Assembly: GCA_017398335.1 (NCBI GenBank) | Contig: JAFQGK010000018.1 | Location: forward strand, 62,001-126,000 | Reading direction: 5' to 3' | Source: Bacteroidales bacterium | GTDB taxonomy: Bacteria > Bacteroidota > Bacteroidia > Bacteroidales > UBA932 | Length of the DNA stretch: 64,000 nucleotides | Shown: positions 23,904-45,636 of the stretch, piece by piece | Layout: the number at the start of each line of letters is the position of its first letter | Numbering within the stretch: the first letter of the stretch is position 1 | The notes under the pieces: generated by a model | Seen by the model: only the letters and a program-made list of their open reading frames with translations | Told to the model about the DNA's origin: nothing | Database searches by the model: none | Program-made: the position numbers and the translations under genes

Positions 23904-24656
23904 ATGAGATGTGATAATTGCGGATGGAGCAATCCTGAAGGCTTGACCAAGTGTCAAAAATGTAATCAAGAACTTATTCCTGCTCCTGTATCATCTTCTT
24001 CAGCACCAGCAAATCAAGGCGCTTTCAATCAGACAATCATTGATCAGACCAAGGTACATTCTGTATCACAGGATCAGCAGGCTGTAGCTTGTCCTCGTTG
24101 TGGGTATCCATTGTCATCATCGAATACATTCTGTCCGAATTGCGGAACCCAGGTAAGTGTAGAAAAGCCATCCGAGCATGTTGAGTATGCTAAGACGGTA
24201 AGGATTCTTCCGGAAGAATTTCTCGAGACGGAATCTCCTGAAATTGTTGAGGAACATCTTAAAAAGACAGTTAGGGAAATACCTGCAGACCTTATGAATG
24301 CTACACAAAATTCCCAGACAGTCAGGGTGCTTCCAGAGGAAATGCTATGCGATGAAGAGGATGCTCAGCCGAAAGAGCCATCTTTCAGACTGATCCCAAT
24401 GGATAATTTCGATGGAGCTACGCCTCTTGCTAAAAAGTTCGAGGGTGCCGATACTATAATTAATGGAGAAGCACTCGTTTCTGAGGGATCCTATGTGCCA
24501 GAAGGACTGGAAGTCGAGTTTACATATGCAGATGATATGTGGACGTTAACAGATAAGACGGTTGAAAAAGCCGTGTATGTTTCGGCGGCCAACGGAGTAA
24601 ATGTGAAGTCGGGCGATATCATAGTTATAGGCAATCGTAGATATATATTCGAGTAA
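23904..24656 (+). CDS. Double zinc-ribbon protein with C-terminal FHA-like segment
   Basis: 250 residues. Two zinc ribbons: CDNCGWSNPEGLTKCQKC (residues 2-19) and CPRCGYPLSSSNTFCPNCG (about 63-81). The middle (90-170) is acidic with two repeated TVR(I/V)LPEE(F/M)L segments that look like peptide motifs. The C-terminal 75 residues end SGDIIVIGNRRYIFE, the typical last strands of an FHA domain, but the phosphothreonine-binding GR and SxxH motifs are not obvious. First gene after the structured RNA; its stop overlaps the kinase start (TAATG). The threonines in the repeats are possible kinase targets (inference). Confidence 0.65.
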   Translation: MRCDNCGWSNPEGLTKCQKCNQELIPAPVSSSSAPANQGAFNQTIIDQTKVHSVSQDQQAVACPRCGYPLSSSNTFCPNCGTQVSVEKPSEHVEYAKTVRILPEEFLETESPEIVEEHLKKTVREIPADLMNATQNSQTVRVLPEEMLCDEEDAQPKEPSFRLIPMDNFDGATPLAKKFEGADTIINGEALVSEGSYVPEGLEVEFTYADDMWTLTDKTVEKAVYVSAANGVNVKSGDIIVIGNRRYIFE

Positions 24657-25975
24657 TGCAGGGATACATACCGAACATTGTTCCGGAAAGGCACATCTGT
24701 AAGGTTGGCGAGATTATAAACTCTCGCTATACAATCGTGTCCCTTCTGGGTGAGGGATCGTTTGGTCATGTATTCATGGTAAAGGATTTTTCTGGCAGGG
24801 AGTTCGCTCTTAAGCTTCTGCATTTATGGGATGTCCCTTCAGACATACGTCAGCCGTTAATTGACCGATTCGAAATGGAGTATAGGACTGGGCGTATAGT
24901 CAGCGACTATCTTGTTCACTCTGTGGATATCGGCTATCTTGCTGGTAATCCATATATAGTAATGGAATATTGTAGCGGGGGAGATCTCAGTTCAAGGTTA
25001 GGTGATGGGGGCGTTCAAACTTTAAGGTATGCCCGCGATATCCTTCGTGGTTTGAATGATCTTCATATAAACGGAAAAGTACATCGTGATCTGAAACCGG
25101 AAAATGTGCTTATAAAATCCGATGGTATTGCGGCTTTGACGGATTTCGGCATCTCTGGTGACCGAAATAAAAGAATGACCGAAAGAAATATTTTCGGAAG
25201 ACCATATCAGGTGTTCGGTACATATGCGTATATGCCACCAGAACAGGTTAATAGAGCGAGAGGTGGCAGTACAGTACTCCCGACGACGGATGTCTTTTCT
25301 TTTGGAGTACTCTTATATCAGATGATAACAGGAAAACTACCGTTTGGTAAACTGGAGAGCCAAAATGACCTTGTGTGGTATCAGAAGAAAGGAAAGGCAG
25401 GAGACTGGGATAAAATAACCTTATACAATACTCCTAATGGAAAATGTTGGGAACCTGTGATTGAAGGATGTCTTCAGCCAGATTATAAGAATCGCTTGCA
25501 GAATGCTGCTGCAGTAATGGAACTTTTGCCGGATTTCGGTCTGGTAAATAATCAATCTCCAAATACTCTAAAGACGGTAAATGTTTCCAATGAAGGCGAT
25601 GTGGCTTCAATCAGAGGTTGCAGAATCATGATTCTGCAGGGATTGGAATATGGAAAGATCTACGATCTGAGTGCTATGGTAAAGCAAAACAAACGTTTTC
25701 TTCTGACACTTGGTAGAGGCGAAGATAATTCGATACAACTTATGGATTATCAATCTTTCTATACGTCGAGGTACCATTGCACGATTGAAATCGGACAAGA
25801 CTTGCGTTCTGCCACAATAAGAGATGGACAATGGGATGTGGAGTCACGTTGTTGGAGGTCTTCTTCGAATGGAACATACGTCAATTCGACAGAAGTTTCA
25901 TCAGTTGGACAGCAATTGAGAGAGGGTGATATTATAACAATCGGTGAAATAACCATAAGATTTGAATCCTATTAA
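24656..25975 (+). CDS. Ser/Thr protein kinase with C-terminal FHA domain
   Basis: 439 residues. Hanks-type kinase (about 25-290): G-loop LGEGSFGHVF (31-40), ATP Lys53 in FALKLL, catalytic HRDLKPEN (143-150), DFGIS (163-167), and PPEQ of the P+1 region. All key residues are present, so it should be active. C-terminal FHA domain (about 345-439): LGRGEDNSI, SRYHCTIEI and SSNGTYVNSTEV carry the conserved Gly-Arg, Ser-x-x-His and Asn residues that read phosphothreonine. No membrane span. Start codon overlaps the stop of the zinc-ribbon gene. Probably the central kinase of the locus. Confidence 0.92.
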   Translation: MQGYIPNIVPERHICKVGEIINSRYTIVSLLGEGSFGHVFMVKDFSGREFALKLLHLWDVPSDIRQPLIDRFEMEYRTGRIVSDYLVHSVDIGYLAGNPYIVMEYCSGGDLSSRLGDGGVQTLRYARDILRGLNDLHINGKVHRDLKPENVLIKSDGIAALTDFGISGDRNKRMTERNIFGRPYQVFGTYAYMPPEQVNRARGGSTVLPTTDVFSFGVLLYQMITGKLPFGKLESQNDLVWYQKKGKAGDWDKITLYNTPNGKCWEPVIEGCLQPDYKNRLQNAAAVMELLPDFGLVNNQSPNTLKTVNVSNEGDVASIRGCRIMILQGLEYGKIYDLSAMVKQNKRFLLTLGRGEDNSIQLMDYQSFYTSRYHCTIEIGQDLRSATIRDGQWDVESRCWRSSSNGTYVNSTEVSSVGQQLREGDIITIGEITIRFESY

Positions 25976-25994
25976 CAACTTAATATTAAACGCT

Positions 25995-27710: not shown

Positions 27711-27726
27711 ATCCATTTAATGCTAG

Positions 27727-27756
27727 GATATGGTACGGGGTACCTGTGCCATATCC
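27727..27756 (+). other. Intercistronic hairpin
   Basis: GGATATGG (27727-27734) with CCATATCC (27749-27756), plus an alternative inner pairing GGTAC/GTACC, in the 73-base gap between the pseudoprotease and phosphatase genes. There is no T-run, so an RNA processing or stabilising structure is more likely than a full terminator. Confidence 0.4.
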
Positions 27757-27783
27757 GGCATTCTTATTATAAGAAAACATAAA

Positions 27784-28899
27784 ATGTCAGAAATGTTATT
27801 TAAGTTGACGGCCAGTACCAATGTGGGATGCGTCAGGACAAACAATGAAGACAACTTTATTGTAAATGAGAATCTGAGCAGTGGGAATTGGTTTGTCCCA
27901 AGCGATCTTTCCAAGACTATCTCTTTGGGAGAGAGTGGAGCAATACTAGTCGTCGCTGATGGAATGGGAGGGATGAATGCAGGAGAAGTTGCTTCTGCTA
28001 TTGCCATTGACACGATAAAGTCTGTTTTTTCTTTGGATGATTATTCAAAGATAATAGTATCAGATAAAAAAATCGAAGCATTTCTGAAGGATGCTATCAT
28101 TGATGCGGACACGAAAATCAAAGCGAAAGTAAAGGAAGATGATTCTACGTCCGGCATGGGAACGACGATAGTTATCGCCTGGATTTTAAAAGATGTAGCT
28201 CATATCGCTTGGTGCGGTGATAGCAGAGCTTATCTTTTCAATCCTAGTTCAGGCCTGGTCCGATTGTCAAAGGACCATTCATATGTTCAGGAGTTGGTAG
28301 ATGCAGGAAAACTTGATCCGGAACTTGCATTCGATCATCCTAACAGTAATATCATTACAAGAAGTCTTGGCGATTCTCCGGCTAAGGCTCGTCCGGATTA
28401 TGTCTCTAGGGTACTTACAGAAGGAGACAGCATTTTACTTTGCAGTGATGGACTTTGCGGCTTGTGCAGGGATGAGGAAATAGCCCAGATAATGATTGAT
28501 GCAGAGGATATAGAAAACTGTAAGAACAATCTTATCAAGGCAGCGCTTGAGGCAGGTGGATATGATAACGTCACTGTGGCATTGTTTGAGGTAGACTCGC
28601 TTGATAGTGAAGAGGTTGTGGTGACGGATACAACTAATGACCTAAAGACGGTCAAAAATCGGAAACGTCGTAGCCGCCGTCTGACATCATTGATTGTAAT
28701 ACTCGTGCTGGCAGCATTAGTGGGAGGACTTTATTATACCGGTAATTTAAAGCCGGTTCTAAGATATGTCAAGGATAAATTAGAGTATCTCCTTGATGAA
28801 TCTCCTAAGTCTCAGAATTCTTCTGAGATAGGTATGTTAAATATGGAAAATGCTAAGGATACATCGGATGTTGCGCCGGTGGATTCAATAAATATATAA
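27784..28899 (+). CDS. PP2C-family protein phosphatase with C-terminal membrane anchor
   Basis: 371 residues from ATG 27784. PP2C motifs: TNNEDNFIV (metal Asp), VADGMGGMNAGE (57-68), SGMGTTIV, AWCGDSRAYLF, LSKDHSYV, LCSDGL and GYDNVTVALF. The Mn/Mg ligands look intact. After the phosphatase domain (about 1-265) comes a basic stretch (KNRKRRSRR) and one span (LIVILVLAALVGGLYY, about 300-315) with a short outer tail, so it is a tail-anchored inner membrane phosphatase facing the cytoplasm. It would reverse the two neighbouring kinases. Confidence 0.92.
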   Translation: MSEMLFKLTASTNVGCVRTNNEDNFIVNENLSSGNWFVPSDLSKTISLGESGAILVVADGMGGMNAGEVASAIAIDTIKSVFSLDDYSKIIVSDKKIEAFLKDAIIDADTKIKAKVKEDDSTSGMGTTIVIAWILKDVAHIAWCGDSRAYLFNPSSGLVRLSKDHSYVQELVDAGKLDPELAFDHPNSNIITRSLGDSPAKARPDYVSRVLTEGDSILLCSDGLCGLCRDEEIAQIMIDAEDIENCKNNLIKAALEAGGYDNVTVALFEVDSLDSEEVVVTDTTNDLKTVKNRKRRSRRLTSLIVILVLAALVGGLYYTGNLKPVLRYVKDKLEYLLDESPKSQNSSEIGMLNMENAKDTSDVAPVDSINI

Positions 28900-28906
28900 T
28901 AGAGAT

Positions 28907-30004
28907 ATGCAATATTCGATAGGACAATTATTGGACGGGAGATATTCCTTGACCAGGTTCATCGGAAGTGGCAGTTTCGGTGAAGTATGGGTTGCGGTAG
29001 ATCGTGCGACAGATCTCGAAGTGGCAATCAAGATATATTTGTCGATGGATCCTAAGGGACTTGCTGACTTTAAGAAAGAGTTTCAGGTGTCTTTTGATCT
29101 GAACCATACTCATCTGTTGCATGCCAATTATTTAGGTACTGCATCTGAGGATAACAGACCTTATCTTGTCATGCCTCTCTGTCCGGAGGGCTCTGCAAGC
29201 CGGTATATCGGAAAGGCGGATGAGTTCATTCTATGGAAATTCATAAAGGACGTAGCAGCTGGTCTTGCATATCTGCATGAGCAGCATCCGCCGCTTATAC
29301 ATCAGGATATCAAGCCGGATAATATCCTTATTTCAAAGAATGGAGATTTTCTCATTACAGACTTTGGTATCAGTAAGCAATTGAGAAATACTCTAAAGAA
29401 GAGTGCTGGCCATCTCAGTTCCGCAGGATCGGTATCTTATATGGGACCGGAAAGATTCAGTAAACAGAGTATGCCGATCAAGGCTAGTGACATATGGTCA
29501 TTAGGTGCGACCTTGTATGAGTTGGCTACAGGAGATCTTCCGTTTTGTGGAATGGGAGGTAGTATGCAGAAGAAGGGTGCCGATATACCTGAACTTCCTG
29601 ACACCTTCTCGGATACATTGAACCTTGTTGTCATGTCTTGTATGGCAAAGGAAACATGGGAACGTCCGACTGCCAGACAACTCGAAGATTTTGCCTCAAA
29701 ACAATTGATGGGAGATTCTCCAAAGATAACATGGACATTGCCGACTTCGGCAAGTACCTCCAATCTTGTCCCTGTACAGCAGACAGTTTCTGTGCAGAGT
29801 GTTGAGTTAAGACAGAAACCGGTTGTAAATTCTAAACTTAAAAAAACGGTAGCCGTAGGATCTGCTCCCGTCATTGATCAATCACCGCAACAACCTCAGG
29901 TATTACCGGAAATAAAGGAATCGAAGCCTATTCCTGTGATTTTCTGGCTGTTGTCCGCTATAGCTGGATTGACAACAGGTTTTTTGTTGAACATCTTCAT
30001 TTAA
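28907..30004 (+). CDS. Membrane-anchored Ser/Thr protein kinase (HQD variant)
   Basis: 365 residues. Kinase domain 12-265: FIGSGSFGEVWVA (18-30), VAIKIY with Lys42, catalytic loop IHQDIKPDN (131-139), DFGIS, GPER, DIWSLGATLYEL. The catalytic Asp134 is present but the preceding Arg of HRD is Gln133, so it belongs with non-RD kinases, which generally do not need activation-loop phosphorylation. A Pro/Val-rich linker (270-335) leads to one C-terminal span (IPVIFWLLSAIAGLTTGFLL), leaving almost nothing outside. Starts 7 bases after the phosphatase gene. Confidence 0.9.
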   Translation: MQYSIGQLLDGRYSLTRFIGSGSFGEVWVAVDRATDLEVAIKIYLSMDPKGLADFKKEFQVSFDLNHTHLLHANYLGTASEDNRPYLVMPLCPEGSASRYIGKADEFILWKFIKDVAAGLAYLHEQHPPLIHQDIKPDNILISKNGDFLITDFGISKQLRNTLKKSAGHLSSAGSVSYMGPERFSKQSMPIKASDIWSLGATLYELATGDLPFCGMGGSMQKKGADIPELPDTFSDTLNLVVMSCMAKETWERPTARQLEDFASKQLMGDSPKITWTLPTSASTSNLVPVQQTVSVQSVELRQKPVVNSKLKKTVAVGSAPVIDQSPQQPQVLPEIKESKPIPVIFWLLSAIAGLTTGFLLNIFI

Positions 30005-30008
30005 TGGT

Positions 30009-31601
30009 ATGAAGCATCTGATAACATTATGTGCTCTTGTTTCGATGTGTCTGATGTCTTTTACTACTGTTGCGCAGACATTGACAAATAAGGAACGCAG
30101 ACATATTAATACTAAAGCGCTGTCTGTCATAGAGGATTATGAGCGCTATGCAACCTTATATGATGAGGATGCAGAATATGCTTTTATAAACCTTTTTGAT
30201 AATGAGCACACAATGGTTGTCTGTGATATTCTGGGGTTTGCCGGATATCTTGAAAAGATACCGTTAAGCGAATATGTCGATGCTTTGAGAAGAGATGCGG
30301 CAACGGTGACGATGGAAGTAAAGAATGTGCGTAAAGGAGAAATGACCTATGATGGTGAAGAGTGGGTGATTCCCATAATCTTCCAAAAAAGCATATCATA
30401 CATAGACAAGAATGATTATGTGTTTTCTACTGATGCGTTTTATGGAAAGGACTTAGAGATGCAGATGACTATTCACTACAATCCGGAGAGTGACATATGT
30501 CGTATTATCTCTCTGAGTGGCAGTATTGATTCAGATATTGCCTTTCCTGAGGGACGTTTTGTGATGCTCAATAAGGCAGATGTAAATAATGTGCCGGAAA
30601 AGTATCAGAAATATATTCCGGAACTGGAGGTGAACGGAGCCGTAATATCTTATAATCAATTCGATCAGGCTATTCTTCCTTCCGGGGAGCCATCAGTTAA
30701 GGATATAGATGTGCTTGTTTTTCAAGATACACTGCTAAAGGGCCCTAATTATGATGTAATGAAGTTTGATTTCAAACAAAGAAAGACAAGGCTGAAATTG
30801 CATTATGGAATTGCACCATTCGAGGCATATAAACTGTTGGAAAATAATAATATGGGCGATAGCTCGAAAGCTATGGAGGCAGGTGTTGATATTGGTTTCA
30901 CCTGGCGTGCAGGAAAGACGGGAAAGATGGGCTTCTTCTTGGGTGCAGGTCTGTCAATGAGTGAGTTGTCCTTGAGTTTGACAACCCCACCCCCCTTGAG
31001 CTATAATTATAAGACATCTGTGCAAGACAAATCTTCCGGATTGTTCAAAGATCTTAAATTAACTTATGATTTAAGGTCAGCATCAGAGGCATTGAAATTT
31101 ATGGATTTATATGTTCCTCTTTATTTTGAGATAGAGCATAAGGTTGGAAAGCATCTTTTGATTTCATGGAACTTAGGAGTAAAAGGATATTATAACTTTT
31201 CTGCAAAGCTGCAGCCTTATATGGTTGATGGCACCTTAAAAATAGAGGATAATGTGACATCTGAGGTCTCTAACAAGCCGATAGAAGGGCCATTTACGAA
31301 GTATATTTCTCCATCCTCATATAATAAGAGAATGTTTGATGTAAGTCTTATCGGTAATATCGGTTTTGATATAAATCTTCTGAAACGGAAGGTATATCTA
31401 AGTGTGAAAGGCGGATATGAATATGGTTTATTGCCTTCTTATATCGGTAATGGTAATAAGTATTTTGTTTATGAACATATTTTCCCTGTCGTATATGATC
31501 CGATTGAGGAAATGATTGTACCGACACATTCTCTGATTAGCAATATTTCACTTCGTCGTCAGGCTATCTGGCTTGAGACAGGACTCAAATTTAAGATATG
31601 A
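30009..31601 (+). CDS. Exported protein with probable C-terminal outer-membrane beta-barrel
   Basis: 530 residues; signal peptide MKHLITLCALVSMCLMSFTTVAQ. I do not recognise the N-terminal domain (about 25-260). The second half (about 270-530) is built of alternating strands (GVDIGFTWRAGKTGKMGFFLGAG, VPLYFEIEHKVGKHLLISWNLG, VSLIGNIGFDINLLKRKVYLSVKGG) ending in LETGLKFKI, as outer-membrane barrels do. Five bases after the kinase gene, and the stop overlaps the next start (ATGA). It could supply the outer-membrane end of the system (inference). Confidence 0.65.
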   Translation: MKHLITLCALVSMCLMSFTTVAQTLTNKERRHINTKALSVIEDYERYATLYDEDAEYAFINLFDNEHTMVVCDILGFAGYLEKIPLSEYVDALRRDAATVTMEVKNVRKGEMTYDGEEWVIPIIFQKSISYIDKNDYVFSTDAFYGKDLEMQMTIHYNPESDICRIISLSGSIDSDIAFPEGRFVMLNKADVNNVPEKYQKYIPELEVNGAVISYNQFDQAILPSGEPSVKDIDVLVFQDTLLKGPNYDVMKFDFKQRKTRLKLHYGIAPFEAYKLLENNNMGDSSKAMEAGVDIGFTWRAGKTGKMGFFLGAGLSMSELSLSLTTPPPLSYNYKTSVQDKSSGLFKDLKLTYDLRSASEALKFMDLYVPLYFEIEHKVGKHLLISWNLGVKGYYNFSAKLQPYMVDGTLKIEDNVTSEVSNKPIEGPFTKYISPSSYNKRMFDVSLIGNIGFDINLLKRKVYLSVKGGYEYGLLPSYIGNGNKYFVYEHIFPVVYDPIEEMIVPTHSLISNISLRRQAIWLETGLKFKI

Positions 31602-32302
31602 TTATGAGAAAAGGTTTACAGATTACCATGATGGTATTATTATATGTCGCATTTGCTGTTTGTGGATTCTTCCTGCAGGATGTTCTTATGGATGTTCTGA
31701 ATCATAGCAGTACGACAGAGATCAGTGATATGTCTGATACTTCGGGCGTACAGGAAATCAGTCCGGTACCTGTAATCGACAAGATATCATCTCCGGTTCG
31801 GGATGCTTCCGGAAAATATGGTTTTGAGGTCTTCGCAGCGGTAGCGACTGGAGACCAGATGATTTTCGTAGTCTATTCTGATCAGGAGTGCATCAATGAG
31901 GTCGCTAAGGAACTGCTTGGAAAATTCGAGTCGATACCTGCAAAAACCGATGGAAAATATTTTGTGAGGGTTCAAAATGCTACCACTAAAGATTATTCAG
32001 AGATTGTGGCAGTAAATGGTCTGGTGCCGTTGATCATGTACGAAAAAATATCGGCATTGGAGATTGAAAGAATTTGTAATTCAGGAGATTACGGAACAGC
32101 TCCAGTGAAATTCAACCATCGTATAGCACCAGGATGTCAGATTATCCCTCAAGGAATGAATGCAGAAGAAAGAAACGTCTCTACTGTTGCTGATGTATGC
32201 CAGAAGGTAATGATGGGAATATGGGAATCCATATCTGTCGTGAACATAGAATATGACTCCCAGAACAGAATGAAGAAACTTGTCATCAGGATTAACTATT
32301 AA
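31598..32302 (+). CDS. Single-span envelope protein of unknown function
   Basis: 234 residues with an N-terminal hydrophobic segment (ITMMVLLYVAFAVCGFFLQDVL, about 9-30) that could be an uncleaved anchor, then a soluble domain (about 60-234) with no recognised motif. ATGA overlap with the barrel gene shows translational coupling; a second ATG at 31604 is also possible. The end abuts the next gene (TAATG). Only its position in the array suggests a role. Confidence 0.65.
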   Translation: MIMRKGLQITMMVLLYVAFAVCGFFLQDVLMDVLNHSSTTEISDMSDTSGVQEISPVPVIDKISSPVRDASGKYGFEVFAAVATGDQMIFVVYSDQECINEVAKELLGKFESIPAKTDGKYFVRVQNATTKDYSEIVAVNGLVPLIMYEKISALEIERICNSGDYGTAPVKFNHRIAPGCQIIPQGMNAEERNVSTVADVCQKVMMGIWESISVVNIEYDSQNRMKKLVIRINY

Positions 32303-32306
32303 TGTT

Positions 32307-32912
32307 ATGAAGAGACTGATACTTATATTCATTTTGGGGATAGTTGCGCTCACAGGATTTGCTCAAAGACAATCTTTTGAGTTCTATTATATCGCGCATG
32401 ATAGGACCACGCCAGTCGGTAATCTGTGCAGACGTCTTGAAGAGATTTACGATATGGCTCGCAGTTATGATGACTTGGCGACAGTCTTTTATTTTCCAAA
32501 TTATGATAAACCCAAAATAGTCAAGATTAATCTGCCGGGAGATAATCGTAGTGAATTCGAAGAAATCATAAGTGAATTACGTATCAAGGACTCTCATGAG
32601 ATATATGCCGATCTGGATTATGAGAATATTCTGAATATCGTTAACGAGCACGATTTTATAGACGAATCTGGCTCACGGACCTACACTTCTGTGCTGTTCT
32701 GTTGGTATGTCAATCCTGATTTCTGGAGATTTGGATATAATGAGAAACTTATTGCCTCAATTTATTTCAGTCTGGAGTTAAATAAATATTTGGATTATGT
32801 CGCGATGCAGATCTGGCATGCTGATGATGACGGACTTGAGGTTGACAAGGAACTGCCTTTCGGTCATAAGAATCTGTGTCCGGAAGTAAAATTCATATTA
32901 CAGCAATATTAG
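32307..32912 (+). CDS. Small exported protein of unknown function
   Basis: 201 residues from ATG 32307 with a signal peptide (MKRLILIFILGIVALTGFAQ). The mature part is rich in Asp, Tyr and Phe (SFEFYYIAHDRTTPVG, VLFCWYVNPDFWRFGYNEK), with no cysteine pattern and no repeats. Family not recognised. Four bases after the previous stop and 19 bases before the VWA gene. Likely periplasmic. Confidence 0.65.
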   Translation: MKRLILIFILGIVALTGFAQRQSFEFYYIAHDRTTPVGNLCRRLEEIYDMARSYDDLATVFYFPNYDKPKIVKINLPGDNRSEFEEIISELRIKDSHEIYADLDYENILNIVNEHDFIDESGSRTYTSVLFCWYVNPDFWRFGYNEKLIASIYFSLELNKYLDYVAMQIWHADDDGLEVDKELPFGHKNLCPEVKFILQQY

Positions 32913-32931
32913 ACGAATAAAAAAAGAATAT

Positions 32932-35301: not shown

Positions 35302-35320
35302 TGTCCATATAAGTTGACTG

Positions 35321-36193: not shown

Positions 36194-36199
36194 TCATCG

Positions 36200-37774
36200 A
36201 TGAAGATAATAGATTTAATAAAGAGCGATTATTTCCTTCTGTTTGTTAAAAGAGAGGGGAAAGTGGTGCTGGGAAAGAGCTATTCAAATCTATGGCTTCT
36301 TACAGCCGTTCTTTCTGCAACTTTCCTTGCCATAGCATTCAGTAATGCCAGTCTTGACTATCTGTCATATAAGATGGATGATCCGTTCATCAATTGGGTC
36401 GATATCAAGAATGAGTATGGTGAAGGAGACTTCTATGGACTTGAATATGCACTTGACCTGGATGAGAATAAAGAAAGGTATCACTACTATGACTATCAGG
36501 CTGATCACTCCTATACCTATATGTTTTTCGGCCAGGAGGAACATAATATTCAATATCTTAAATGTCGTTTCTTTCAGAACCTGAACACTTCTTTGGTTGA
36601 GGCAATCCTCAGCAAGGATAATGTTGTGAAGAACTGGAAGGTAGATAACATTTCTGATGTCAATCCCAATACGATAGGTGTTATCATTACAGAGGAAGTA
36701 ATGAAGAAAATGGGATATGATTCTGCCCCGTCTTTCATAGATTACATGAGTTATGCTCCAGGGGCGGATGCTTTGGGGTTTGATCTGCTTGAAGATGAGT
36801 TTGCAAGACTACCTGTGCCTGTTCTGGCAGTAGTCAAGAGGTTGCCAGGAAATGTTGATATGATATCTACTTCATATTTCTATCAGCAGGCGTGTAATGA
36901 CAACACATATCCATTCAATATGTGTAATCCGGATTATGCCGGAAACCTTACTTATTTCATACCGGCAGATCTGAAAATGGATAGATTCCGTAAAATTGTT
37001 GAAGATGTCGGAGTGCAATATACTGAGTCTGAACTTGAGATTGACGAATATAGTTTCTATTCTCCCGAACTTATTCCATTTAGAGATGGACAGTTTGTAA
37101 TAGTCAACTGCTTTGACGATTATCTCGATTACGAAGAATTGAAATCCATTAATGAAAAGATATTGGATGAATTGGCGGACGATGGCTTATATCGTGTATA
37201 TTCATATGCTTTCAGCGATTATCCACTTACTCAGAAGGCTTTTCTTTCTGTCCATTTTGAAGATCTTGATATGATACGTGACTTTGAAAGTTATGTCAGA
37301 GATACGTTCAAAGTTAGGATAGAGATGTCTCAGATCAATGCAAAAGAGAACTTTAATGCCGTGAGTGCAATGGGCAACATCCTTTCTTGGGTAATAATTG
37401 TTTTTGCCATCGTATGTATCGTCCTGTTCATTGTCAATCTTCTACAGTCATATTTCCAGAAGGTCAAAAGGAATCTCGGTACATTCAAGGCGTTCGGCAT
37501 AAGCGACAAAGCCTTGATAAGCGTTTATGTGATTATCTTGGCCGCTATAATGTTGGTAGCTATAATTGTCTCTATTACAGTGACTTGGTTGGCGGAGGGG
37601 TGCTTGCATCTTTGTGGAGTTCTCAAGGATGGTGTCTTTGACTATCTGTCTCTATGGAGTATAAAGACCGGTTGTTCTATAATCATTATAATATTTGCAT
37701 CAACCTACACGGTATATTTTGTAATGAGCAGACTATTGAAGTCTACGCCAGGTGATTTGATATATGATAGATAG
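36200..37774 (+). CDS. ABC transporter permease (FtsX/MacB/LolE type)
   Basis: 524 residues with the MacB-type layout: one N-terminal span (LWLLTAVLSATFLAIAFSN, about 30-48), a large periplasmic domain (about 50-390), then three C-terminal spans (about 392-420, 440-470 and 495-515), the FtsX core region with KRNLGTFKAFGIS. Such transporters act mechanically on envelope proteins rather than move solutes through a pore. Immediately after its ATPase and followed by the BACON lipoprotein, which suggests a link to that lipoprotein or to the VWA protein (inference). Confidence 0.85.
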   Translation: MKIIDLIKSDYFLLFVKREGKVVLGKSYSNLWLLTAVLSATFLAIAFSNASLDYLSYKMDDPFINWVDIKNEYGEGDFYGLEYALDLDENKERYHYYDYQADHSYTYMFFGQEEHNIQYLKCRFFQNLNTSLVEAILSKDNVVKNWKVDNISDVNPNTIGVIITEEVMKKMGYDSAPSFIDYMSYAPGADALGFDLLEDEFARLPVPVLAVVKRLPGNVDMISTSYFYQQACNDNTYPFNMCNPDYAGNLTYFIPADLKMDRFRKIVEDVGVQYTESELEIDEYSFYSPELIPFRDGQFVIVNCFDDYLDYEELKSINEKILDELADDGLYRVYSYAFSDYPLTQKAFLSVHFEDLDMIRDFESYVRDTFKVRIEMSQINAKENFNAVSAMGNILSWVIIVFAIVCIVLFIVNLLQSYFQKVKRNLGTFKAFGISDKALISVYVIILAAIMLVAIIVSITVTWLAEGCLHLCGVLKDGVFDYLSLWSIKTGCSIIIIIFASTYTVYFVMSRLLKSTPGDLIYDR

Positions 37775-37781
37775 TATATTT

Positions 37782-40700
37782 ATGAAATATTTGAGAAAGT
37801 TTGGAGCTGTCACTATATCACTATTGTATGTGTTGTGTGCCTGTTCTGATGATTTTATGCAGGATTCTATAACTGATGCTGTCCTACCTATGTCTGACAT
37901 TACTGTTGATCCCTTGGGAGACCGGCTCCAGGTTGCATATACATCAGGAACAAAGTGGCAATGTGTTGTTGGCCCAGATTCCTGGGTAAGTTTCAGTGAT
38001 AACTCAGATGCCATGTCGGGAGATCCCGGTACAACAATAATCACATTAGAAATTAAGCCTAATTTAACAGAACATGATAGAGAGCTGACCTTGAAATTCA
38101 TCAAATGTGATAAGTATGGGAAAATGCTTGCAACTGATTCTGATGGCGGGTCATTTAAAATTTCTCAGAACTATGCCTATTTGAATCTGGAAGGTGATGT
38201 TTTCATGAAGGACCAGGAATGGCAGGTGGTTATGGGCTGGCATAAGGAAGAGATGCCGAAGCAAATATCGGTTAAATCCAACATAAAGTGGATTCCTCGC
38301 TTTGCCGGCAACGGCGAAAAGATAACAGTCTCTGATATTGAACATAAACTAGATGGAGACCATATGCTTAATGTTGAATTCAAGGACAACAATTTAAGCC
38401 TGAATCCATATCTTGCAACCGTTACATTGACTCCGTATAAAGAGAAGGTTAATGGCGATGTTGAAACTCTTCCAACAGAAGTTGTCGAAGCATTGGAAAA
38501 GAAAATAGCAATCATCCATGAAAATCTGGTGTTTCTTGTTGAGGGGAAAGCAGAAGATTATACTCTTCCTGCATTCAGTGAATTGGGACAGGAATGGATG
38601 GTTGATTCACAGATGCAGACGTTGACAATAAAATCAGAAGAAGAGTGGGAATTAGAAGTATATCCGGATTGGGTGAACTGTTCACAAGACCCAACGGGAA
38701 ATGAGACAGTTGGAGAAAAGGAACTTGCGGTTACGTTATTGAGCTTAAATGTTCATGAAGCTAATCCTGATTCTACTGATAGGAATGGTCTGGTAGTATT
38801 GCAATCTGTCAGAGATAATAGGGCAAAGAGAATAATCAATGTTAAGCAGAGCGGGTATAAGTTGGAAGGTCGTCTATATCGTGATGATTATGAAGTCAAA
38901 TATATGCCGGTTGATACCAGTGGCACGGCTCAACTTAAGATCGAAACAAACGGACCATGGAAGATTATAGCATGGCCGGAATGGATGTCAATTCCAGAAG
39001 ACGGTCTGTCCGGTACAGGAAATGCTGAGATATCTGTAACAAGTACTGTCTGGAATCTTAGTCAGGATGAGTTGCCGGGTAATATATTGATTGTTCCTGA
39101 AAACTCAAACGGTGCCCGTCCTAATAATCTTGAAAGGATTGTTGATGTCAGAAAAGCCCCATTCATATTCAGAATGGGTGAGAATGTGGTAAACAATAAG
39201 AAGGTCAAGGATATCTTGTCTCAGCTACCGATGAAGAACACAAGCACCTACAAGCTATATGTTGAGACTTCGGGACCATGGGATCTTCTGCCAATAGAAT
39301 ATGTCGCACCGGAAAACGGGACTTCAGATTGGTTTGAGGTTTCGGAAACAAGCGGAGAAGAGAGTAAGTATATAGATGTAAGGGCGCTTAGTGTGAATCC
39401 TGATAAGGATAATGACAGGACGGCCAAAATGACATTTGTCAGTCGTCTACATCAGCAGATGGGGCAGTCTCTTTCTATAGATGTTCCCGTTACTCAAGAA
39501 AAACTTATCTTTGAGATAGGGGAGTCAAGCCTTAGAGTACCGGCTTATAAGAAGAATGGTATTCAGAAACAGCTGGAATTCAAATGTTCATATGACTGGA
39601 CACTTACTGCTCCTGATTGGATTTATGTAACATCTGACCCTCAAGGTCTGAATCCAATGTATTCTGGTGATGGTCTGGATTATCCGACACTATATATGAA
39701 TATAGAGACGAATACGTCCAAAAATGAAAATCCAGGAAGAATAGCAATAACTAATCACTACGATAACGAAGTAAAATATATTGATGTTACTCAAGATGGG
39801 TTTGTCTTTGATGTAAATATGCCGTCTGTTCCGTCCTTGTTGAGTTATAAGAACGCAGGAACTTATACTATAGGTGTCACGACGACAGATGAGGCGGAAT
39901 GGGAGGTTATACCTGAAGAGGAATATGATTGGATAGAGAAGACGAAGGATGCAAGCTCTCTGGTTCTGACCGTATTGGATAATAGAACTCAAAAAGAGCG
40001 CACGGGTAAGTTTGCCATAAAGAGTAATGTGAGTGGTGAAACAAAGCCTCTGACGTTAAAGCAGGAGAATTATTTGTTCAATGTACCCGACAAGACTTTC
40101 AGCAACTTCGATGAACTGGCGTCAAATTCTCAAACTCAGTGTTTCAATGTTGAATGTAAGGATTCATGGGAAATAATCAACAGCCACGACTGGCTTTTAG
40201 TAGAACCGAAATCAGAAAGTGGAAACCAGGAGGTGTCTGTAAAAGTTATTAAGAATAATTTGGGAGATTCTGAGCGTTCGGCAACGATCACGGTAAAAGA
40301 CCATTTTGGGGGCTATTCCAAGAATCTGACATTTAAACAAAATGGCTATATCTTTAATCTGACAGATAATTCAGACATCCAACTGAACGATAATAATGCT
40401 ACAACCAAAAAAGTTACACTTAAATCAAGTGATAAATGGACCGCATCGTCAGATAAAGATTGGATAACCCTCGACCCATCTTCAGGTGAAGCATCAAAGA
40501 CTTCGGGAGCAGATATTAATCTAAAGATAGAAAAGAATCTGATCAATGAGAAAAGGACGGCGACACTCACATTCAAGAGTGAATACTATTCGGATGATAA
40601 TCCTTTAACGAATCTTATAAATACAATAACTGTTATTCAACCGGAGTATCAGTTCAGTGTCGCAGAGCGTGACTCAATTGAAGTCAGTGCCGCTGGCATT

Positions 40701-40985
40701 GAGCAGAATGTGGATGTCATTTGCTCGGGTTCTTGGAAAGTTGAGTCAGACAAGTCCTGGTGTAATGTTGGAATCGGCACACGTGCTGCAGTAGAAGCCA
40801 CAGGCAATGGAACAATTGTCCTGAAAATCGACCCTAACAGATCTGATGGAAAAACTCCAAGTGAGGAGCGCAAAGCAATTGTTACAATAAGTACGACCGA
40901 TGGCTCGAAGTTCAGTGACGGCTCTAGCTTAAGCAAGAGAATCACTGTCATTCAGTTCGGCGAGCAACCACCTGCAAACAATTAA
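37782..40985 (+). CDS. Giant lipoprotein with about ten BACON-type repeats
   Basis: 1067 residues from ATG 37782; lipoprotein signal MKYLRKFGAVTISLLYVLCAC. The rest is a chain of about ten Ig-like BACON modules of 80-110 residues, each with the W-x-V/I...W signature, for example SDKWTASSDKDWITLDPSSG, CKDSWEIINSHDWLLVEP, CSYDWTLTAPDWIYVTSDP and TNGPWKIIAWPEWMSIPE. BACON domains are common in Bacteroidota surface proteins and are proposed to bind carbohydrate or mucin. A start at 37764 would overlap the permease gene and break the signal peptide. By eye this is the most AT-rich gene in the window. Confidence 0.85.
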   Translation: MKYLRKFGAVTISLLYVLCACSDDFMQDSITDAVLPMSDITVDPLGDRLQVAYTSGTKWQCVVGPDSWVSFSDNSDAMSGDPGTTIITLEIKPNLTEHDRELTLKFIKCDKYGKMLATDSDGGSFKISQNYAYLNLEGDVFMKDQEWQVVMGWHKEEMPKQISVKSNIKWIPRFAGNGEKITVSDIEHKLDGDHMLNVEFKDNNLSLNPYLATVTLTPYKEKVNGDVETLPTEVVEALEKKIAIIHENLVFLVEGKAEDYTLPAFSELGQEWMVDSQMQTLTIKSEEEWELEVYPDWVNCSQDPTGNETVGEKELAVTLLSLNVHEANPDSTDRNGLVVLQSVRDNRAKRIINVKQSGYKLEGRLYRDDYEVKYMPVDTSGTAQLKIETNGPWKIIAWPEWMSIPEDGLSGTGNAEISVTSTVWNLSQDELPGNILIVPENSNGARPNNLERIVDVRKAPFIFRMGENVVNNKKVKDILSQLPMKNTSTYKLYVETSGPWDLLPIEYVAPENGTSDWFEVSETSGEESKYIDVRALSVNPDKDNDRTAKMTFVSRLHQQMGQSLSIDVPVTQEKLIFEIGESSLRVPAYKKNGIQKQLEFKCSYDWTLTAPDWIYVTSDPQGLNPMYSGDGLDYPTLYMNIETNTSKNENPGRIAITNHYDNEVKYIDVTQDGFVFDVNMPSVPSLLSYKNAGTYTIGVTTTDEAEWEVIPEEEYDWIEKTKDASSLVLTVLDNRTQKERTGKFAIKSNVSGETKPLTLKQENYLFNVPDKTFSNFDELASNSQTQCFNVECKDSWEIINSHDWLLVEPKSESGNQEVSVKVIKNNLGDSERSATITVKDHFGGYSKNLTFKQNGYIFNLTDNSDIQLNDNNATTKKVTLKSSDKWTASSDKDWITLDPSSGEASKTSGADINLKIEKNLINEKRTATLTFKSEYYSDDNPLTNLINTITVIQPEYQFSVAERDSIEVSAAGIEQNVDVICSGSWKVESDKSWCNVGIGTRAAVEATGNGTIVLKIDPNRSDGKTPSEERKAIVTISTTDGSKFSDGSSLSKRITVIQFGEQPPANN

Positions 40986-40996
40986 AACATAACTAT

Positions 40997-41707
40997 ATGA
41001 AAAAGATTACAATCGGACGCAACACGGATAATGACATCGTCATTATGGATCAGTCGGTAAGCGGATATCATGCAGACTTGGAGATTTTGGATAATGGGGA
41101 GATGATATTCAGAGATCATAGTACCAATGGTACGATGGTTAATGGTAATCATCTTCATAATGATTTCTGTTATGTATTCGGGACGGATAAAATCGTTTTC
41201 CCAGGACAGCATAGATTTGATTGGACAGAAATCGAACTCCCGAAACAGATGGATGAGGTTCTGGTGGCTTCAGGCCCGCAGTGCCAGCCACAATTACAGC
41301 CGCAGCCACAGGTCCCTCAGCCTCTCCCTAAGTATCAGCAGCCAGTTTCTCCTCAGCAGCTGGAACGTTACGGAGAAATAGGTTTTGTCGGAGTATTAAA
41401 GAGCTTCTGGGTGAATTATTTCAATTTCTCAGGCCGTGCAAGAAGAAAGGAATACTGGCTAATGGCAGTATGGAATATGATATTCTCATTAATTCCTATT
41501 ATCGGATGGCTTGTAATCATTGCTGGGTGCATAGGTTATATATCTCTTGCTGTGAGACGCTTGCATGATATAGGCAGAAGCGGATTACTATTGTTATTAG
41601 GTTTGATACCATTTATCGGATCCATCATTCTATTTGTTTTCTATTGTATGGATTCGGAGCTAGGACAGAACAAATGGGGTGCATCTCCTAAGTATATGAA
41701 CAACTAA
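40997..41707 (+). CDS. FHA domain fused to a DUF805 membrane domain
   Basis: 236 residues. N-terminal FHA (about 2-75: ITIGRNTDNDIVIMDQSVSGYHADLEI, RDHSTNGTMVNG) with the conserved Gly-Arg, Ser-x-x-His and Asn residues, a Gln/Pro-rich linker (90-125), then DUF805 (about 130-236): FNFSGRARRKEYW, spans around 145-165 and 190-215, and AVRRLHDIGRSG. DUF805 proteins are small membrane proteins of unknown function; FHA recruitment suggests this one responds to the neighbouring kinases. Starts 11 bases after the BACON gene; the WG gene follows after one base. Confidence 0.88.
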   Translation: MKKITIGRNTDNDIVIMDQSVSGYHADLEILDNGEMIFRDHSTNGTMVNGNHLHNDFCYVFGTDKIVFPGQHRFDWTEIELPKQMDEVLVASGPQCQPQLQPQPQVPQPLPKYQQPVSPQQLERYGEIGFVGVLKSFWVNYFNFSGRARRKEYWLMAVWNMIFSLIPIIGWLVIIAGCIGYISLAVRRLHDIGRSGLLLLLGLIPFIGSIILFVFYCMDSELGQNKWGASPKYMNN

Positions 41708-41708
41708 A

Positions 41709-44700: not shown

Positions 44701-44846
44701 GTGATAGCATTGAGCGTCTTAAAGGAGGCAAGCTTTTCCGCCATGGTGTTGCTAATGCACGTTTGGATGGTAATAGAATAAAGATTGATGAGTATGGAAA
44801 TATTATTCATCAATATACGATGTTGACAGATGTACAACCAAAATAA
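41709..44846 (+). CDS. Exported WG-repeat protein
   Basis: 1045 residues with a signal peptide (1-22, LILILSTVSLSAQ). WG repeats, a (K/L)(W/Y/F)G(V/I/Y) unit of about 40-50 residues, form two blocks: residues about 50-290 (KWGAINEKG, KYGIINAKG, LFGTVDKLG, KWGVMSDG, SLGVVSLYG) and about 730-1035 (NFGLVGRDG, YYGVVDIN, LYGCYDKNG, RFGFIDKKG, KYGYIDKSG, KWGIINTSG, KCGIYSHRG). The 440 residues between are a different, unrecognised domain. WG arrays are thought to form beta-propeller-like binding surfaces. Confidence 0.85.
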   Translation: MRKYNVIFNVLILILSTVSLSAQNLADLPNMREIKGKKLLEKIVPKQNPKDGLWGYVNQEDKFSVRPIFTDACQYEGKVARISLAHKWGAINEKGLFQILPIYEALEPFSEDSLAVFKINGKYGIINAKGGTVLKPVYDSFEYTDYGYVVEKDGLFGTVDKLGKPLLEPQFEKIELLDKQKGISHIRKGGKWGVMSDGRDVLTIKWDAPITFLQSGTGNLPDLYLAKQNGSLGVVSLYGDYVVQPIYDNIELSTSGDYYITSDKHKYGALSLNMAEIFPAIMDTKPFLGENIFKVHDDGRFYCANVKGAIDFDKCADLYQLFKPEEYITTKYFPQWAKTHVIEENLLSRQDRLDKAATVCDKMMRYDYDVKAASMDKEIPSGFRLHFPESWNEKYGIMKKGVFSKTSQSGILYRAYEDTENNVTLEYNPYRSEYVIKVDDCSFSMQDVVRKFNIKEFVGFYPKEYARVNESEIMVNFAFVRSANDVATPLIETEAYMLPLSAYPVKVYNGPQNPSLETSAVITFSLDSLKATSCLELVSGIKLDLVFSRFGGFYTRSDARILADKDSPLKKYDRHGRLDWEYRPPYNEVYYDIEETENYIYICGSVNDGNKEMPIVRQLSKRGKSERVLHGTSDNARYTGILCDNYILYVSTTFLKNTPSYGRDYYPVYCLDQMNDNVGVWYKCIWEDWGTGKVGGMGLTDMNGTWLQTPNLSEQVSSAFDWEFGRFSGDDNYLVVRHMGNFGLVGRDGSMLIDPKYELLETLDNPQYFRGRFNGYYGVVDINDRVIVPFEYSYVGSMSEDIIVVSKDGLYGCYDKNGKMTVPMEYEEIREYVDGMARIRFKKRFGFIDKKGETVVAPFSDEVENFSEGFTLVTIKGKKGFVSFSGDWIAAPMYDDGKNFSAGLAPLSQSGKYGYIDKSGNFVIPMQFNNALEFDVASGLACVATAGKWGIINTSGMTVIPMEFDKVEICTDGYVYVEKNGKCGIYSHRGKVIFEPICDSIERLKGGKLFRHGVANARLDGNRIKIDEYGNIIHQYTMLTDVQPK

Positions 44847-44879
44847 ATCTTATTATTAACTTTTAAAAACAAAAGCATT

Positions 44880-45569
44880 ATGAAAAAGATTCTTTTATTT
44901 GTAGCTGCGATGTTCGCAGGTGTATCAATGTCAGCCCAACTTAAGGGTGACATGAGCATTTCTGGTAATTTCCTGTTTGATACAGGTAAAACAGTTGCCA
45001 CTACTAAAGCAGGTTCGACAACAAGCACAGACAAGACTCCACAGCCGCTTCAGTTTGGTGCTGGAGTATCCTTCGGATATTTTGTTGCAGAGAATTGTGA
45101 GATTAACCTCGGTCTTGGTTATGATCTGACAAGAAAGTGGCTCAACTATGCGGATACAGATGCCAATAAGAAACACTATGATTTTACAAACGGATTTTCT
45201 TTGACACCTGGCTTCAAGTATTATGTGTCGCTTGTAGACGATGTTTTCTACTATACACCTAATGTGTATCTCGGCTTAGGTTTCAATTTCGGAAAGACAC
45301 ATACAAGCGATACAGAGACTACCAAGAAGGAGAATCTTCCTTTTGTTTTCAGTGCAGGTCTTGATGTCGCATCATTTGAAATCAAACCTAGCTATAATGT
45401 GGGTATTACATTCAGCCTTGGTGGAATCTATTACACAAACAGCACTGTAAAGTATGAAATTGGCTCCGGTGATAACCTTATAAAGTTCAAGTCAACAGAA
45501 AGCAATTTCAATATCAGTCTTGACGACTTCTTCACACCTAAGATCGGTGTCAAGTTCTACTTCTTTTAA
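44880..45569 (+). CDS. Outer-membrane beta-barrel protein
   Basis: 229 residues; signal peptide MKKILLFVAAMFAGVSMSAQ, then strands with alternating hydrophobic residues: MSISGNFLFDTG, FGAGVSFGYFVAENCEINLGLGYDL, TPGFKYYVSLVDDVFYYTPNVYLGLGFNFG, ending FTPKIGVKFYFF with the C-terminal Phe typical of BAM substrates. Eight to ten strands are expected. Codon use is more biased than in the preceding genes, suggesting strong expression. Last gene of the array (33-base gap after the WG gene), closed by a terminator. Confidence 0.85.
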   Translation: MKKILLFVAAMFAGVSMSAQLKGDMSISGNFLFDTGKTVATTKAGSTTSTDKTPQPLQFGAGVSFGYFVAENCEINLGLGYDLTRKWLNYADTDANKKHYDFTNGFSLTPGFKYYVSLVDDVFYYTPNVYLGLGFNFGKTHTSDTETTKKENLPFVFSAGLDVASFEIKPSYNVGITFSLGGIYYTNSTVKYEIGSGDNLIKFKSTESNFNISLDDFFTPKIGVKFYFF

Positions 45570-45598: not shown

Positions 45599-45636
45599 GA
45601 AGAAGCCGACCCATTCGAGTCGGCTTCTTCCTTTTA
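45599..45636 (+). terminator. Rho-independent terminator closing the signalling array
   Basis: Perfect 12-base arms (45599-45610 and 45619-45630), 8-base loop, then CTTTTATATT. Lies between the barrel gene and the convergent sdhC and may act in both directions, although the minus-strand T-tract is poor. Confidence 0.85.

What the first reader, a model, noticed from the sequence alone, without database searches (positions are those of the whole stretch)
23904..45569. A phospho-signalling system spanning the envelope: kinases, PP2C, four FHA or FHA-like proteins, VWA, ABC transporter and BACON/WG/barrel proteins in one array
Seen: fourteen same-strand genes with gaps mostly under 35 bases or overlapping, containing two Ser/Thr kinases, one PP2C, three clear FHA domains plus one likely, a pseudoprotease, a TssR-like VWA protein, a MacB/LolD-type transporter pair, a roughly 1067-residue BACON lipoprotein, a WG-repeat protein and two barrels. 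Known: kinase/phosphatase/FHA triads control T6SS in other bacteria (PpkA, PppA, Fha), and TssR belongs to the Bacteroidota T6SS. Inference: a self-contained relay in which cytosolic phosphorylation is read by FHA proteins that cross the inner membrane and drive periplasmic and surface components. I know of no described system with this set; absence of T6SS sheath, Hcp, VgrG and ClpV genes argues against an ordinary T6SS.
Basis: partly seen in the sequence, partly recalled or inferred. Interest (0 to 1): 0.9.

Follow-up and report, generated by a model that had tools for sequence, protein, structure and literature searches.

The report
Phospho-controlled TssR–ABC envelope machine without T6SS
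A Bacteroidales genome carries a 15-gene operon that joins protein kinases, a phosphatase and phospho-reading proteins to what looks like an envelope machine built around a relative of a type VI secretion anchor protein and an ABC transporter, although no secretion harpoon was detected in the genome; relatives of it may show where that anchor came from.

Summary
The array is real: 15 same-strand genes (23904-45569), terminator-like hairpins at both ends, GC 40.7% against about 48% in the flanks. It holds two Hanks kinases, a PP2C, three FHA proteins (one with a pseudoprotease), a TssR homologue, a MacB/LolD-type ABC pair, and BACON and WG proteins. It is not a T6SS: TssC and TssP profiles find nothing in this genome (86% complete) but find all 11 T6SS controls. 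The core array recurs in six named Bacteroidales MAG loci. Across Bacteroidota, TssR forms two lineages (100/100): T6SS-locus TssR, and one followed directly by an ABC transporter in 17 of 18 uncut loci. TssC is absent from 12 of 14 such genomes tested. Three of these clusters also hold a TssP homologue, but two of those three genomes have a T6SS elsewhere; one further genome has a hybrid T6SS locus. A 2024 paper reports no membrane-complex homologues outside T6SS loci. Best reading: a phosphorylation-gated, ABC-powered envelope complex serving a giant surface protein. Function is inferred; whether T6SS recruited from it or the reverse is unresolved.

The parts
23783..23802 (+). Terminator-like hairpin before the operon
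   Evidence: 2 terminator-like sites found in the region, 0.8 expected; consensus match only
23904..24656 (+). Gene 1: double zinc-ribbon protein with three TVR..P repeats; candidate multi-site phosphothreonine acceptor (inference)
   Evidence: zinc ribbons; repeats; FHA not supported
24656..25975 (+). Gene 2: Hanks kinase + C-terminal FHA; HRD and DFG motifs present
   Evidence: Pkinase 126 bits, FHA 48 bits
25962..27710 (+). Gene 3: FHA - one predicted TM (170-188) - coiled coil - trypsin-like pseudoprotease; true start probably ATG 25995
   Evidence: FHA 60 bits; Trypsin_2 27.0 bits, just below its cut-off 27.6; His to R, Ser to D; TM
27730..28899 (+). Gene 4: PP2C phosphatase with a predicted TM near the C-terminus; start probably ATG 27784
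   Evidence: PP2C 2.3e-16; Stp1-type 224.3 bits, cut-off 230
28907..30004 (+). Gene 5: Hanks kinase with C-terminal TM; HQD and DFG motifs
   Evidence: (150 bits)
30009..31601 (+). Gene 6 (OMb1): exported protein with N-terminal domain and probable OM beta-barrel
   Evidence: (96.6% profile match to the equivalent protein of deep relatives); no direct Pfam hit
31598..32302 (+). Gene 7 (p234): N-terminal hydrophobic segment (probable anchor) plus periplasmic domain; lies in the slot that TssP holds in three deep relatives, homology to TssP not shown
32280..32912 (+). Gene 8 (p210): exported ~200-aa protein, just before the TssR-like gene in 7 of 7 arrays of this type; start probably ATG 32307
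   Evidence: deep homologue 92% over 164 columns
32932..35301 (+). Gene 9: TssR homologue (N-barrel, VWA with the four MIDAS residues checked, C-domain); signal peptide without an obvious lipobox (by eye)
35321..36193 (+). Gene 10: ABC ATPase, best curated relatives LolD / bacteriocin-export / MacB type, all far below cut-off
36200..37774 (+). Gene 11: FtsX/MacB-type permease, 4 predicted TMs with a large extra-membrane domain between the first two
   Evidence: (FtsX 33.7 bits)
37764..40985 (+). Gene 12: large BACON-domain lipoprotein (1067 aa from ATG 37782), candidate surface client (inference)
   Evidence: lipobox read by eye
40997..41707 (+). Gene 13: FHA + DUF805 membrane protein
   Evidence: FHA 52.3, DUF805 77.2 bits
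41709..44846 (+). Gene 14: exported WG-repeat protein (accessory; among the six named loci matched only in L096)
44880..45569 (+). Gene 15: small exported barrel-like protein (accessory; matched in none of the six named loci)
45599..45630 (+). 12-bp-stem terminator-like hairpin just after the last gene
   Evidence: consensus match only

Best explanation
The operon encodes one envelope-spanning machine with its own phospho-switch. Core: a MacB/LolD-type ABC pair in the inner membrane, an inner-membrane-anchored periplasmic protein (p234), two periplasmic proteins (p210 and a TssR homologue whose VWA domain keeps its MIDAS residues) and an outer-membrane barrel-like protein (OMb1). ATP hydrolysis by the ABC pair, passed on mechanically as in MacB/Lol/FtsEX-type transporters (recalled), would drive the TssR-like VWA protein to capture and move or release a client at the outer membrane. 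The likely client is the giant BACON lipoprotein. Control: membrane-tethered Hanks kinases phosphorylate threonines (candidates: the repeated TVR motifs of the zinc-ribbon protein and the invariant KRTVAGS tail of the FHA-TM protein); FHA domains read the mark; the single-pass FHA protein passes the state across the inner membrane to its periplasmic pseudoprotease; PP2C resets it. Shown by sequence: gene content, catalytic motifs, hydrophobic segments, conservation of the core as a unit, no T6SS marker found in this genome. Inferred: physical complex, client, phosphosites, direction of the signal.
For: Catalytic motifs of both kinases and PP2C present, three scored FHA domains. Six named MAG loci keep the order kinase-OMb1-p234-p210-TssR, and ABC-ABC-BACON follow in the four whose contigs go on (L095 and L099 end after TssR, L098 is cut upstream). 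TssR homology 99.95% over 728 columns, in a lineage apart from T6SS TssR (22 B vs 13 A rows, 100/100). A TssR-family gene or block is followed directly by the ABC genes in 17 of 18 uncut B loci (20 in all); window ABC queries match nothing in 14 of 14 T6SS-type loci fetched. OMb1 and p210 homologues beside TssR in deep relatives. Large proteins with T9SS tails (SprB, PKD or GEVED) in the three deep B clusters where I scanned the large protein (G503, G203, G1060). MIDAS residues complete in 15 of 22 B and 0 of 13 A rows. TssC profile: 0 of 10 B genomes including the window's, 11 of 11 T6SS genomes (5 of the 11 gave rows to the profile, 6 did not; Pfam confirms it as TssC). No full-length TssP in the same 10, full-length in the same 11 (8 of the 11 gave rows). 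A second lineage, G114, also links TssR-ABC with two kinases, PP2C and FHA.
Against: In 12 of 20 B loci no kinase lies in the stretch fetched (several are short), so phospho-control is not part of the core; six of the eight kinase-linked loci came from a window-like query, so that count is biased. The single kinase of L097, L098 and L100 has DYG in place of DFG. In G1060 and G1160 a T6SS locus without adjacent tssP/tssR exists elsewhere, so there the TssR-ABC cluster may serve the T6SS. The scanned proteins of G114 and G056 show no T9SS tail, and G156:C1 has a B-type TssR without ABC. The window genome is 86% complete. No structure could be predicted. p234 has no detectable homology to TssP. 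The Thr-Val enrichment was chosen after seeing the sequences; PP2C and kinase-1 linkers are not enriched and exported proteins of L095/L096 are. No expression, interaction or phosphoproteomic data exist here.
Confidence: 0.42

Rival explanations
1. It is the detached membrane-complex or control module of a type VI secretion system encoded elsewhere (split T6SS-iii loci are known, PMC10781749 section 11).
For: TssR homologue; kinase/PP2C/FHA triads regulate a subset of T6SSs (PMC5995506, passages read). G1125 has a T6SS locus with a TssR of the B side, and G1060 and G1160 hold T6SS loci lacking adjacent tssP/tssR.
Against: TssC and full-length TssP are not found in the window genome and 9 other B genomes while found in 11 T6SS genomes. 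Within one genus, G905 and G1079 have the cluster but no TssC while G1160 has both. No ABC match lies in the 14 T6SS-type loci fetched.
Confidence: 0.12
2. A specialised lipoprotein or large-protein export path: the ABC pair works like Lol/MacB and the TssR-like, p210 and OMb1 proteins form the periplasmic and outer-membrane route for the BACON lipoprotein, with kinases acting only on expression or stability.
For: LolD/MacB-type ATPase and FtsX-type permease, BACON directly downstream in 5 of 5 uncut window-type loci, large exported proteins next to deep relatives.
Against: In the deep clusters scanned the large proteins carry T9SS C-terminal signals and would use T9SS; no MacA/LolA-like partner was recognised in the array; it does not explain the VWA/MIDAS or the TM-FHA protein.
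Confidence: 0.25
3. An anti-phage or abortive-infection kinase module (KKP or MADS-like) with envelope parts.
For: Kinases score against PADLOC mad6 and PD-T4-6 models; KKP is a kinase-kinase-phosphatase module with an FHA kinase (PMC11341870, passages read); lower-GC array, patchy distribution.
Against: The PADLOC hits are to the kinase domain; no cold-shock-domain kinase in Pfam; most of the operon is envelope proteins conserved with TssR-ABC.
Confidence: 0.07
4. Envelope-stress or cell-surface sensing: BACON, WG, OMb1 and the TssR VWA sense an outside ligand and signal inward to the kinases through the pseudoprotease/FHA protein; the ABC only gates the sensor.
For: Pseudoprotease where three relatives have an intact HtrA-like triad fits a sensor; kinase 2 and PP2C have predicted TMs; MIDAS vWA domains bind peptides (PMC7159879, passages).
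Against: Neither kinase has a sizeable periplasmic part; no transcription regulator scored in the array.
Confidence: 0.14

Closest known systems
Bacteroidota T6SS-iii membrane complex TssNQOPR (PMC10781749: abstract, passages and section 11 read)
   Same: TssR homology over 728 profile columns; three related ABC-linked clusters (G1060, G1160, G905) also hold a TssP homologue.
   Different: No tail, sheath or Hcp genes in the array and no TssC or TssP detected in the genome; TssR-like is followed by an ABC pair; MIDAS residues complete; no obvious lipobox; TssR_M model not reached; no TssN/O/Q model scored in the array; kinase/PP2C/FHA module present.
Threonine phosphorylation pathway (PpkA-PppA-Fha) of T6SS-i (PMC5995506, passages read)
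   Same: Ser/Thr kinase, phosphatase and FHA reader encoded with an envelope complex; a working analogy.
   Different: Not linked to a T6SS here; two kinases, three FHA proteins, one a FHA-TM-pseudoprotease; no TagF or TssL scored in the array.
MacB / LolCDE / FtsEX-type (mechanotransmission) ABC transporters (recalled; Pfam/NCBIfam hits)
   Same: LolD/MacB-like ATPase, FtsX-type permease with four predicted TMs and a large domain.
   Different: All scores far below the curated equivalog cut-offs; encoded with TssR, p210 and OMb1 and no MacA/LolA-like partner recognised.
KKP kinase-kinase-phosphatase module (PMC11341870, passages read)
   Same: Two kinases, one with FHA, plus PP2C.
   Different: Different gene order, no cold-shock-domain kinase, coupled to an envelope complex and not to prophage control.

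Membership tests
Type VI secretion system (T6SS-iii) | Sheath protein TssC in the genome | tested here: not met
   Profile A8: 0 in G000, 11 of 11 T6SS genomes found, 6 of them not used to build it; the A8 member scanned is Pfam TssC. Pfam VipB misses all 11 and is not usable.
Type VI secretion system (T6SS-iii) | TssP present | tested here: not met
   Profile A7: no match in G000, full-length in 11 of 11 T6SS genomes, 3 of them not used to build it; p234 lies in the slot but profile probability is 1-3%.
Type VI secretion system (T6SS-iii) | TssR present | tested here: met
   Three of four TssR Pfam models match, two above cut-off; hhalign 99.95% over 728 columns. A homologue, not a member of the T6SS-locus lineage (next row).
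T6SS-locus TssR lineage | Window TssR groups with TssR of T6SS loci in a tree | tested here: not met
   Separated by a 100/100 branch; 99/98 in the smaller tree.
Hanks kinase / PP2C / FHA signalling module | Catalytic motifs of kinases and phosphatase, scored FHA domains | tested here: met
   activity itself not testable here.
MacB/LolCDE-type ABC transporter | ATPase plus FtsX-type permease with large extra-membrane domain | tested here: met
   no named equivalog reached (LolD 134.5 of 307.75 bits).
KKP defence module | PP2C followed by two kinases, one fused to a cold-shock domain | tested here: not met
   Order STK-FHA, FHA, PP2C, STK; no cold-shock domain in Pfam.
Trypsin/HtrA-like active protease | His-Asp-Ser triad | tested here: not met
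   R and D at the His and Ser positions in the window; triad intact in L097, L098, L100; domain absent in L095, L096, L099.

The most novel reading that the evidence does not exclude
The TssR(-TssP)-p210-OM-barrel-ABC cluster is a free-standing envelope machine older than the Bacteroidota T6SS membrane complex. TssP and TssR were recruited from it into the T6SS (with loss of VWA MIDAS residues, and G1125, G1060 and G1160 as intermediate forms), and in Bacteroidales the same machine was put under kinase/PP2C/FHA control. The window operon would be a living relative of the unknown ancestor of the T6SS-iii anchor.
Probability: 0.3. Interest if true: 0.92.

Novelty: categorically new. Interest (0 to 1): 0.82.

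Why it matters
A 2024 study states that no T6SS membrane-complex homologues are detected outside T6SS loci and that the complex's origin is therefore hard to identify. Here a TssR homologue lies in an ABC-linked cluster outside T6SS loci, and 12 of 14 such genomes tested have no TssC; three of the clusters also hold a TssP homologue (one of those three genomes lacks TssC, two have it). That makes the origin of the T6SS-iii anchor, or its release from T6SS, directly testable. It also adds a phospho-controlled envelope system in uncultured Bacteroidales with conserved MIDAS residues, an unknown client and specific testable phosphosites.

Tried and rejected
Pfam VipB (PF05943) as T6SS marker: no hit in the window genome but none in 11 T6SS genomes either, so discarded; own TssC (A8) and TssP (A7) profiles used instead. 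Of A8's 5 rows and A7's 8 rows, all come from genomes that also served as controls; 6 and 3 of the 11 controls are independent of them. TssP-profile hits other than full-length ones (list truncated by the tool) are PKD domains, many in large proteins; a few lie in ORFs of about 220-340 aa (for example G176:C149, G597:C11, G503:C44) and were not followed up. In one search only 150 of 271 (G1160) and 150 of 156 (G1060) candidates were scored. Hits covering only the VWA domain or one end (for example G157, G245, G391, G635, G824) are not counted as TssR; G245 and G635 share another VWA protein. Of 33 genomes, neighbourhoods of 11 were fetched, counting G635 but not the window's own; of 23, eight new ones; the rest are unclassified. 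Rows left out of the trees: G577 (split over two fetched pieces) and short TssR paralogues of G114 and G056; G478 entered as a fragment. The labels TssP, TssQ, TssK, ClpV, Hcp, VgrG and PAAR for fetched proteins are mine, from gene order and recall; Pfam confirms TssC, TssO, TssN, TssR, a VipA-type TssB and a VasE-type TssK for the proteins scanned, gives PKD for TssP, and calls my 'TssQ' a weak TssO. Fourth FHA in gene 1: not supported. p234 as a TssP homologue: not shown. Solved-structure searches with TssR, p234, p210, OMb1 and the permease: nothing useful. Plasmid collection: no match to the TssR-like protein.

Site check: in 3 of 8 same-genus stretches fetched (L120, L123, L126) the flanking M24 and sdhC genes lie within 4 kb of each other without the array (in L120 a 330-aa gene and, by eye, a RelA-like gene lie between); in the other five sdhC is not in the stretch. 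Insertion versus loss is open.

Full report
WHAT IS THERE. The window lies at bases 62001-126000 of contig C6 of a 2.2-Mb, 86%-complete genome. Its order is Bacteroidales: genome G389, of the same family, has the same 27,464-base contig as Ca. Coprenecus pullistercoris, a Bacteroidales species. Fifteen same-strand genes run from 23904 to 45569. Terminator-like hairpins lie just before (23783-23802) and just after (45599-45630) the array. GC is 40.7% inside against 47.8% and 48.1% in the flanks, changing at the array's ends. In 3 of 8 same-genus stretches the two flanks lie close together without the array, and the ten other same-genus genomes listed have no TssR match. The array is a discrete, patchily distributed unit.

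PARTS. Pfam gives two Hanks kinases (one with FHA), PP2C, a FHA protein with a weak trypsin-like domain, a FHA-DUF805 protein, a TssR-like protein, an ABC ATPase, a FtsX-type permease, BACON and WG proteins. Kinase and PP2C motifs are present (kinase 2 has HQD in place of HRD). The trypsin-like domain has lost His and Ser of its triad; three relatives keep the triad and three lack the domain. Hydropathy gives one TM in the FHA-pseudoprotease, PP2C and kinase 2, an N-terminal segment in p234, four in the permease. Gene 1 is a zinc-ribbon protein with three copies of a TVR..P motif; Thr-Val motifs also occur in kinase-2 linkers and at the invariant N-terminus of the FHA-TM protein. I read these as candidate phosphosites; the statistics are post hoc.

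CONSERVATION AS A UNIT. A two-sequence TssR alignment found six named MAG loci (titles name water deer caecum, goat rectum and water buffalo rumen, Ca. Coprenecus pullistercoris, and two samples of unstated origin). In all six, kinase - OMb1 - p234 - p210 - TssR-like stand in this order (L095 has two TssR-like genes, L099 two OMb1). ABC ATPase, permease and BACON follow in the four whose contigs go on (L096, L097, L098, L100), so in 5 of 5 uncut loci with the window. PP2C and FHA genes are seen in five of the six; L098 is cut upstream. WG is matched in L096 only, gene 15 in none. A DUF805 part was not found in the one counterpart scanned (L097).

TWO LINEAGES OF TssR. Searches, own genome included: order, 10 of 295 genomes; family, 5 of 149; phylum with profile A1, 33 of 395; class, 23 of 395 at 1e-10. 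I fetched neighbourhoods of all hits and of the stronger or illustrative ones of the others. Fourteen loci have a TssP-type gene directly upstream of TssR, other T6SS-type genes nearby, and no match to the window's ABC genes. Twenty loci (window included) are of another type ('B'): in 17 of the 18 not cut by a contig end, a TssR-family gene or block is followed directly by ABC ATPase and permease, fused in seven; the exception is G156:C1. The tree separates 22 B rows from 13 A rows with 100/100 support (99/98 with fewer rows), and profile comparison shows homology over 728 columns. The four MIDAS residues checked are complete in 15 of 22 B rows, all from the window's order, and in 0 of 13 A rows (one A row has the last Asp but not the Ser/Thr set).

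DEEP CORE. In G1060, G1160 and G905 the order is exported protein(s) - barrel-like protein - TssP homologue - 200-aa protein - TssR - fused ABC. The large protein of G1060 carries GEVED and a T9SS tail. That TssP is homologous to T6SS TssP over 271 columns (99.7%) and has PKD domains. The barrel-like family matches window OMb1 (96.6%, 361 columns) and the 200-aa family matches p210 (92%, 164 columns) (both families include the G1125 member). p234 sits where TssP sits but shows no profile similarity. G503 and G203 clusters carry large T9SS-tail proteins (SprB repeats in G503). G056 has SrfB and SrfC homologues. G114 links two kinases, PP2C and FHA proteins. A kinase lies in the fetched stretch of 8 of 20 loci: the window group of seven and G114.

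T6SS TEST. TssC profile: 0 of 10 B genomes including the window's and 11 of 11 T6SS genomes; among four later B genomes, 2 (G1060, G1160) have TssC. So 12 of 14 B genomes tested lack it; the MAGs other than Coprenecus were not tested. In G1060 and G1160 the T6SS locus lies on another contig without adjacent tssP/tssR, and in G1160 the only full-length TssP hit among the candidates scored is the one beside the ABC, so the cluster may serve the T6SS there. G905 and G1079, same genus as G1160, have the cluster without TssC. G1125 is a hybrid: T6SS-type genes, a large T9SS-tail protein, barrel-like protein, TssP, 200-aa protein and a TssR that branches first on the B side, with no ABC match in the stretch.

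COMPARISON WITH PRINT. PMC10781749 (abstract, passages, section 11 read) defines TssNQOPR, reports no MC homologues outside T6SS loci and no genome with a complete MC lacking all other T6SS genes, and says the origin is hard to identify. The loci here are partial (TssR, or TssP+TssR), so they do not contradict the 'complete MC' statement but do not fit the wider one. Paper searches showed no description of this set; the library holds only open-licence papers. PMC5995506 and PMC11341870 (passages read) give the nearest phospho-control parallels. PMC7159879 (passages) states that MIDAS vWA domains bind extended or unstructured peptides, which supports a client-capture role for the TssR-like VWA.

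MECHANISM AND LIMITS. My reading is a phosphorylation-gated, ABC-powered envelope complex serving the giant BACON lipoprotein. Gene content, motifs, conservation and the lack of detected T6SS markers are shown; complex formation, client, phosphosites and direction of signalling are inferred. Complete MIDAS residues only in B rows suggest that T6SS TssR lost them, which favours recruitment by T6SS. But the tree is unrooted, all B rows outside the window's order, including those nearest the T6SS-linked ones, lack the full set, and two of the three genomes with an ABC-linked TssP hold a T6SS, so release from a T6SS is not excluded.

Noticed in passing
L034/L035 (G056:C15): TssR-ABC cluster contiguous with SrfB and SrfC ('virulence factor') homologues and a subtilase on one side and an FGE-sulfatase protein on the other, with three TssR-family genes in tandem.
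   Followed up: partly
L129 (G1125:C100): T6SS locus with a B-side TssR, TssP, p210- and barrel-like proteins, a 1560-aa T9SS-tail protein and a PAAR-like gene: a hybrid of the two TssR contexts.
   Followed up: partly
L033:1863-3248 (G114): A TssR paralogue with the N-barrel and C-domain but no VWA match; a 492-aa protein of G056 is its homologue.
   Followed up: no
window 25962-27710 versus L097, L098, L100: HtrA-like triad intact in sister arrays, degenerate in the window, whole domain absent in L095, L096 and L099.
   Followed up: partly
PF05943 (VipB) family search: The Pfam VipB model misses the sheath of all 11 T6SS-iii genomes, so it is unsafe as a T6SS absence test in Bacteroidota; PF17541 TssC matches it.
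   Followed up: yes
L095:9986-14719: Two tandem TssR-like genes in the water-deer MAG.
   Followed up: no
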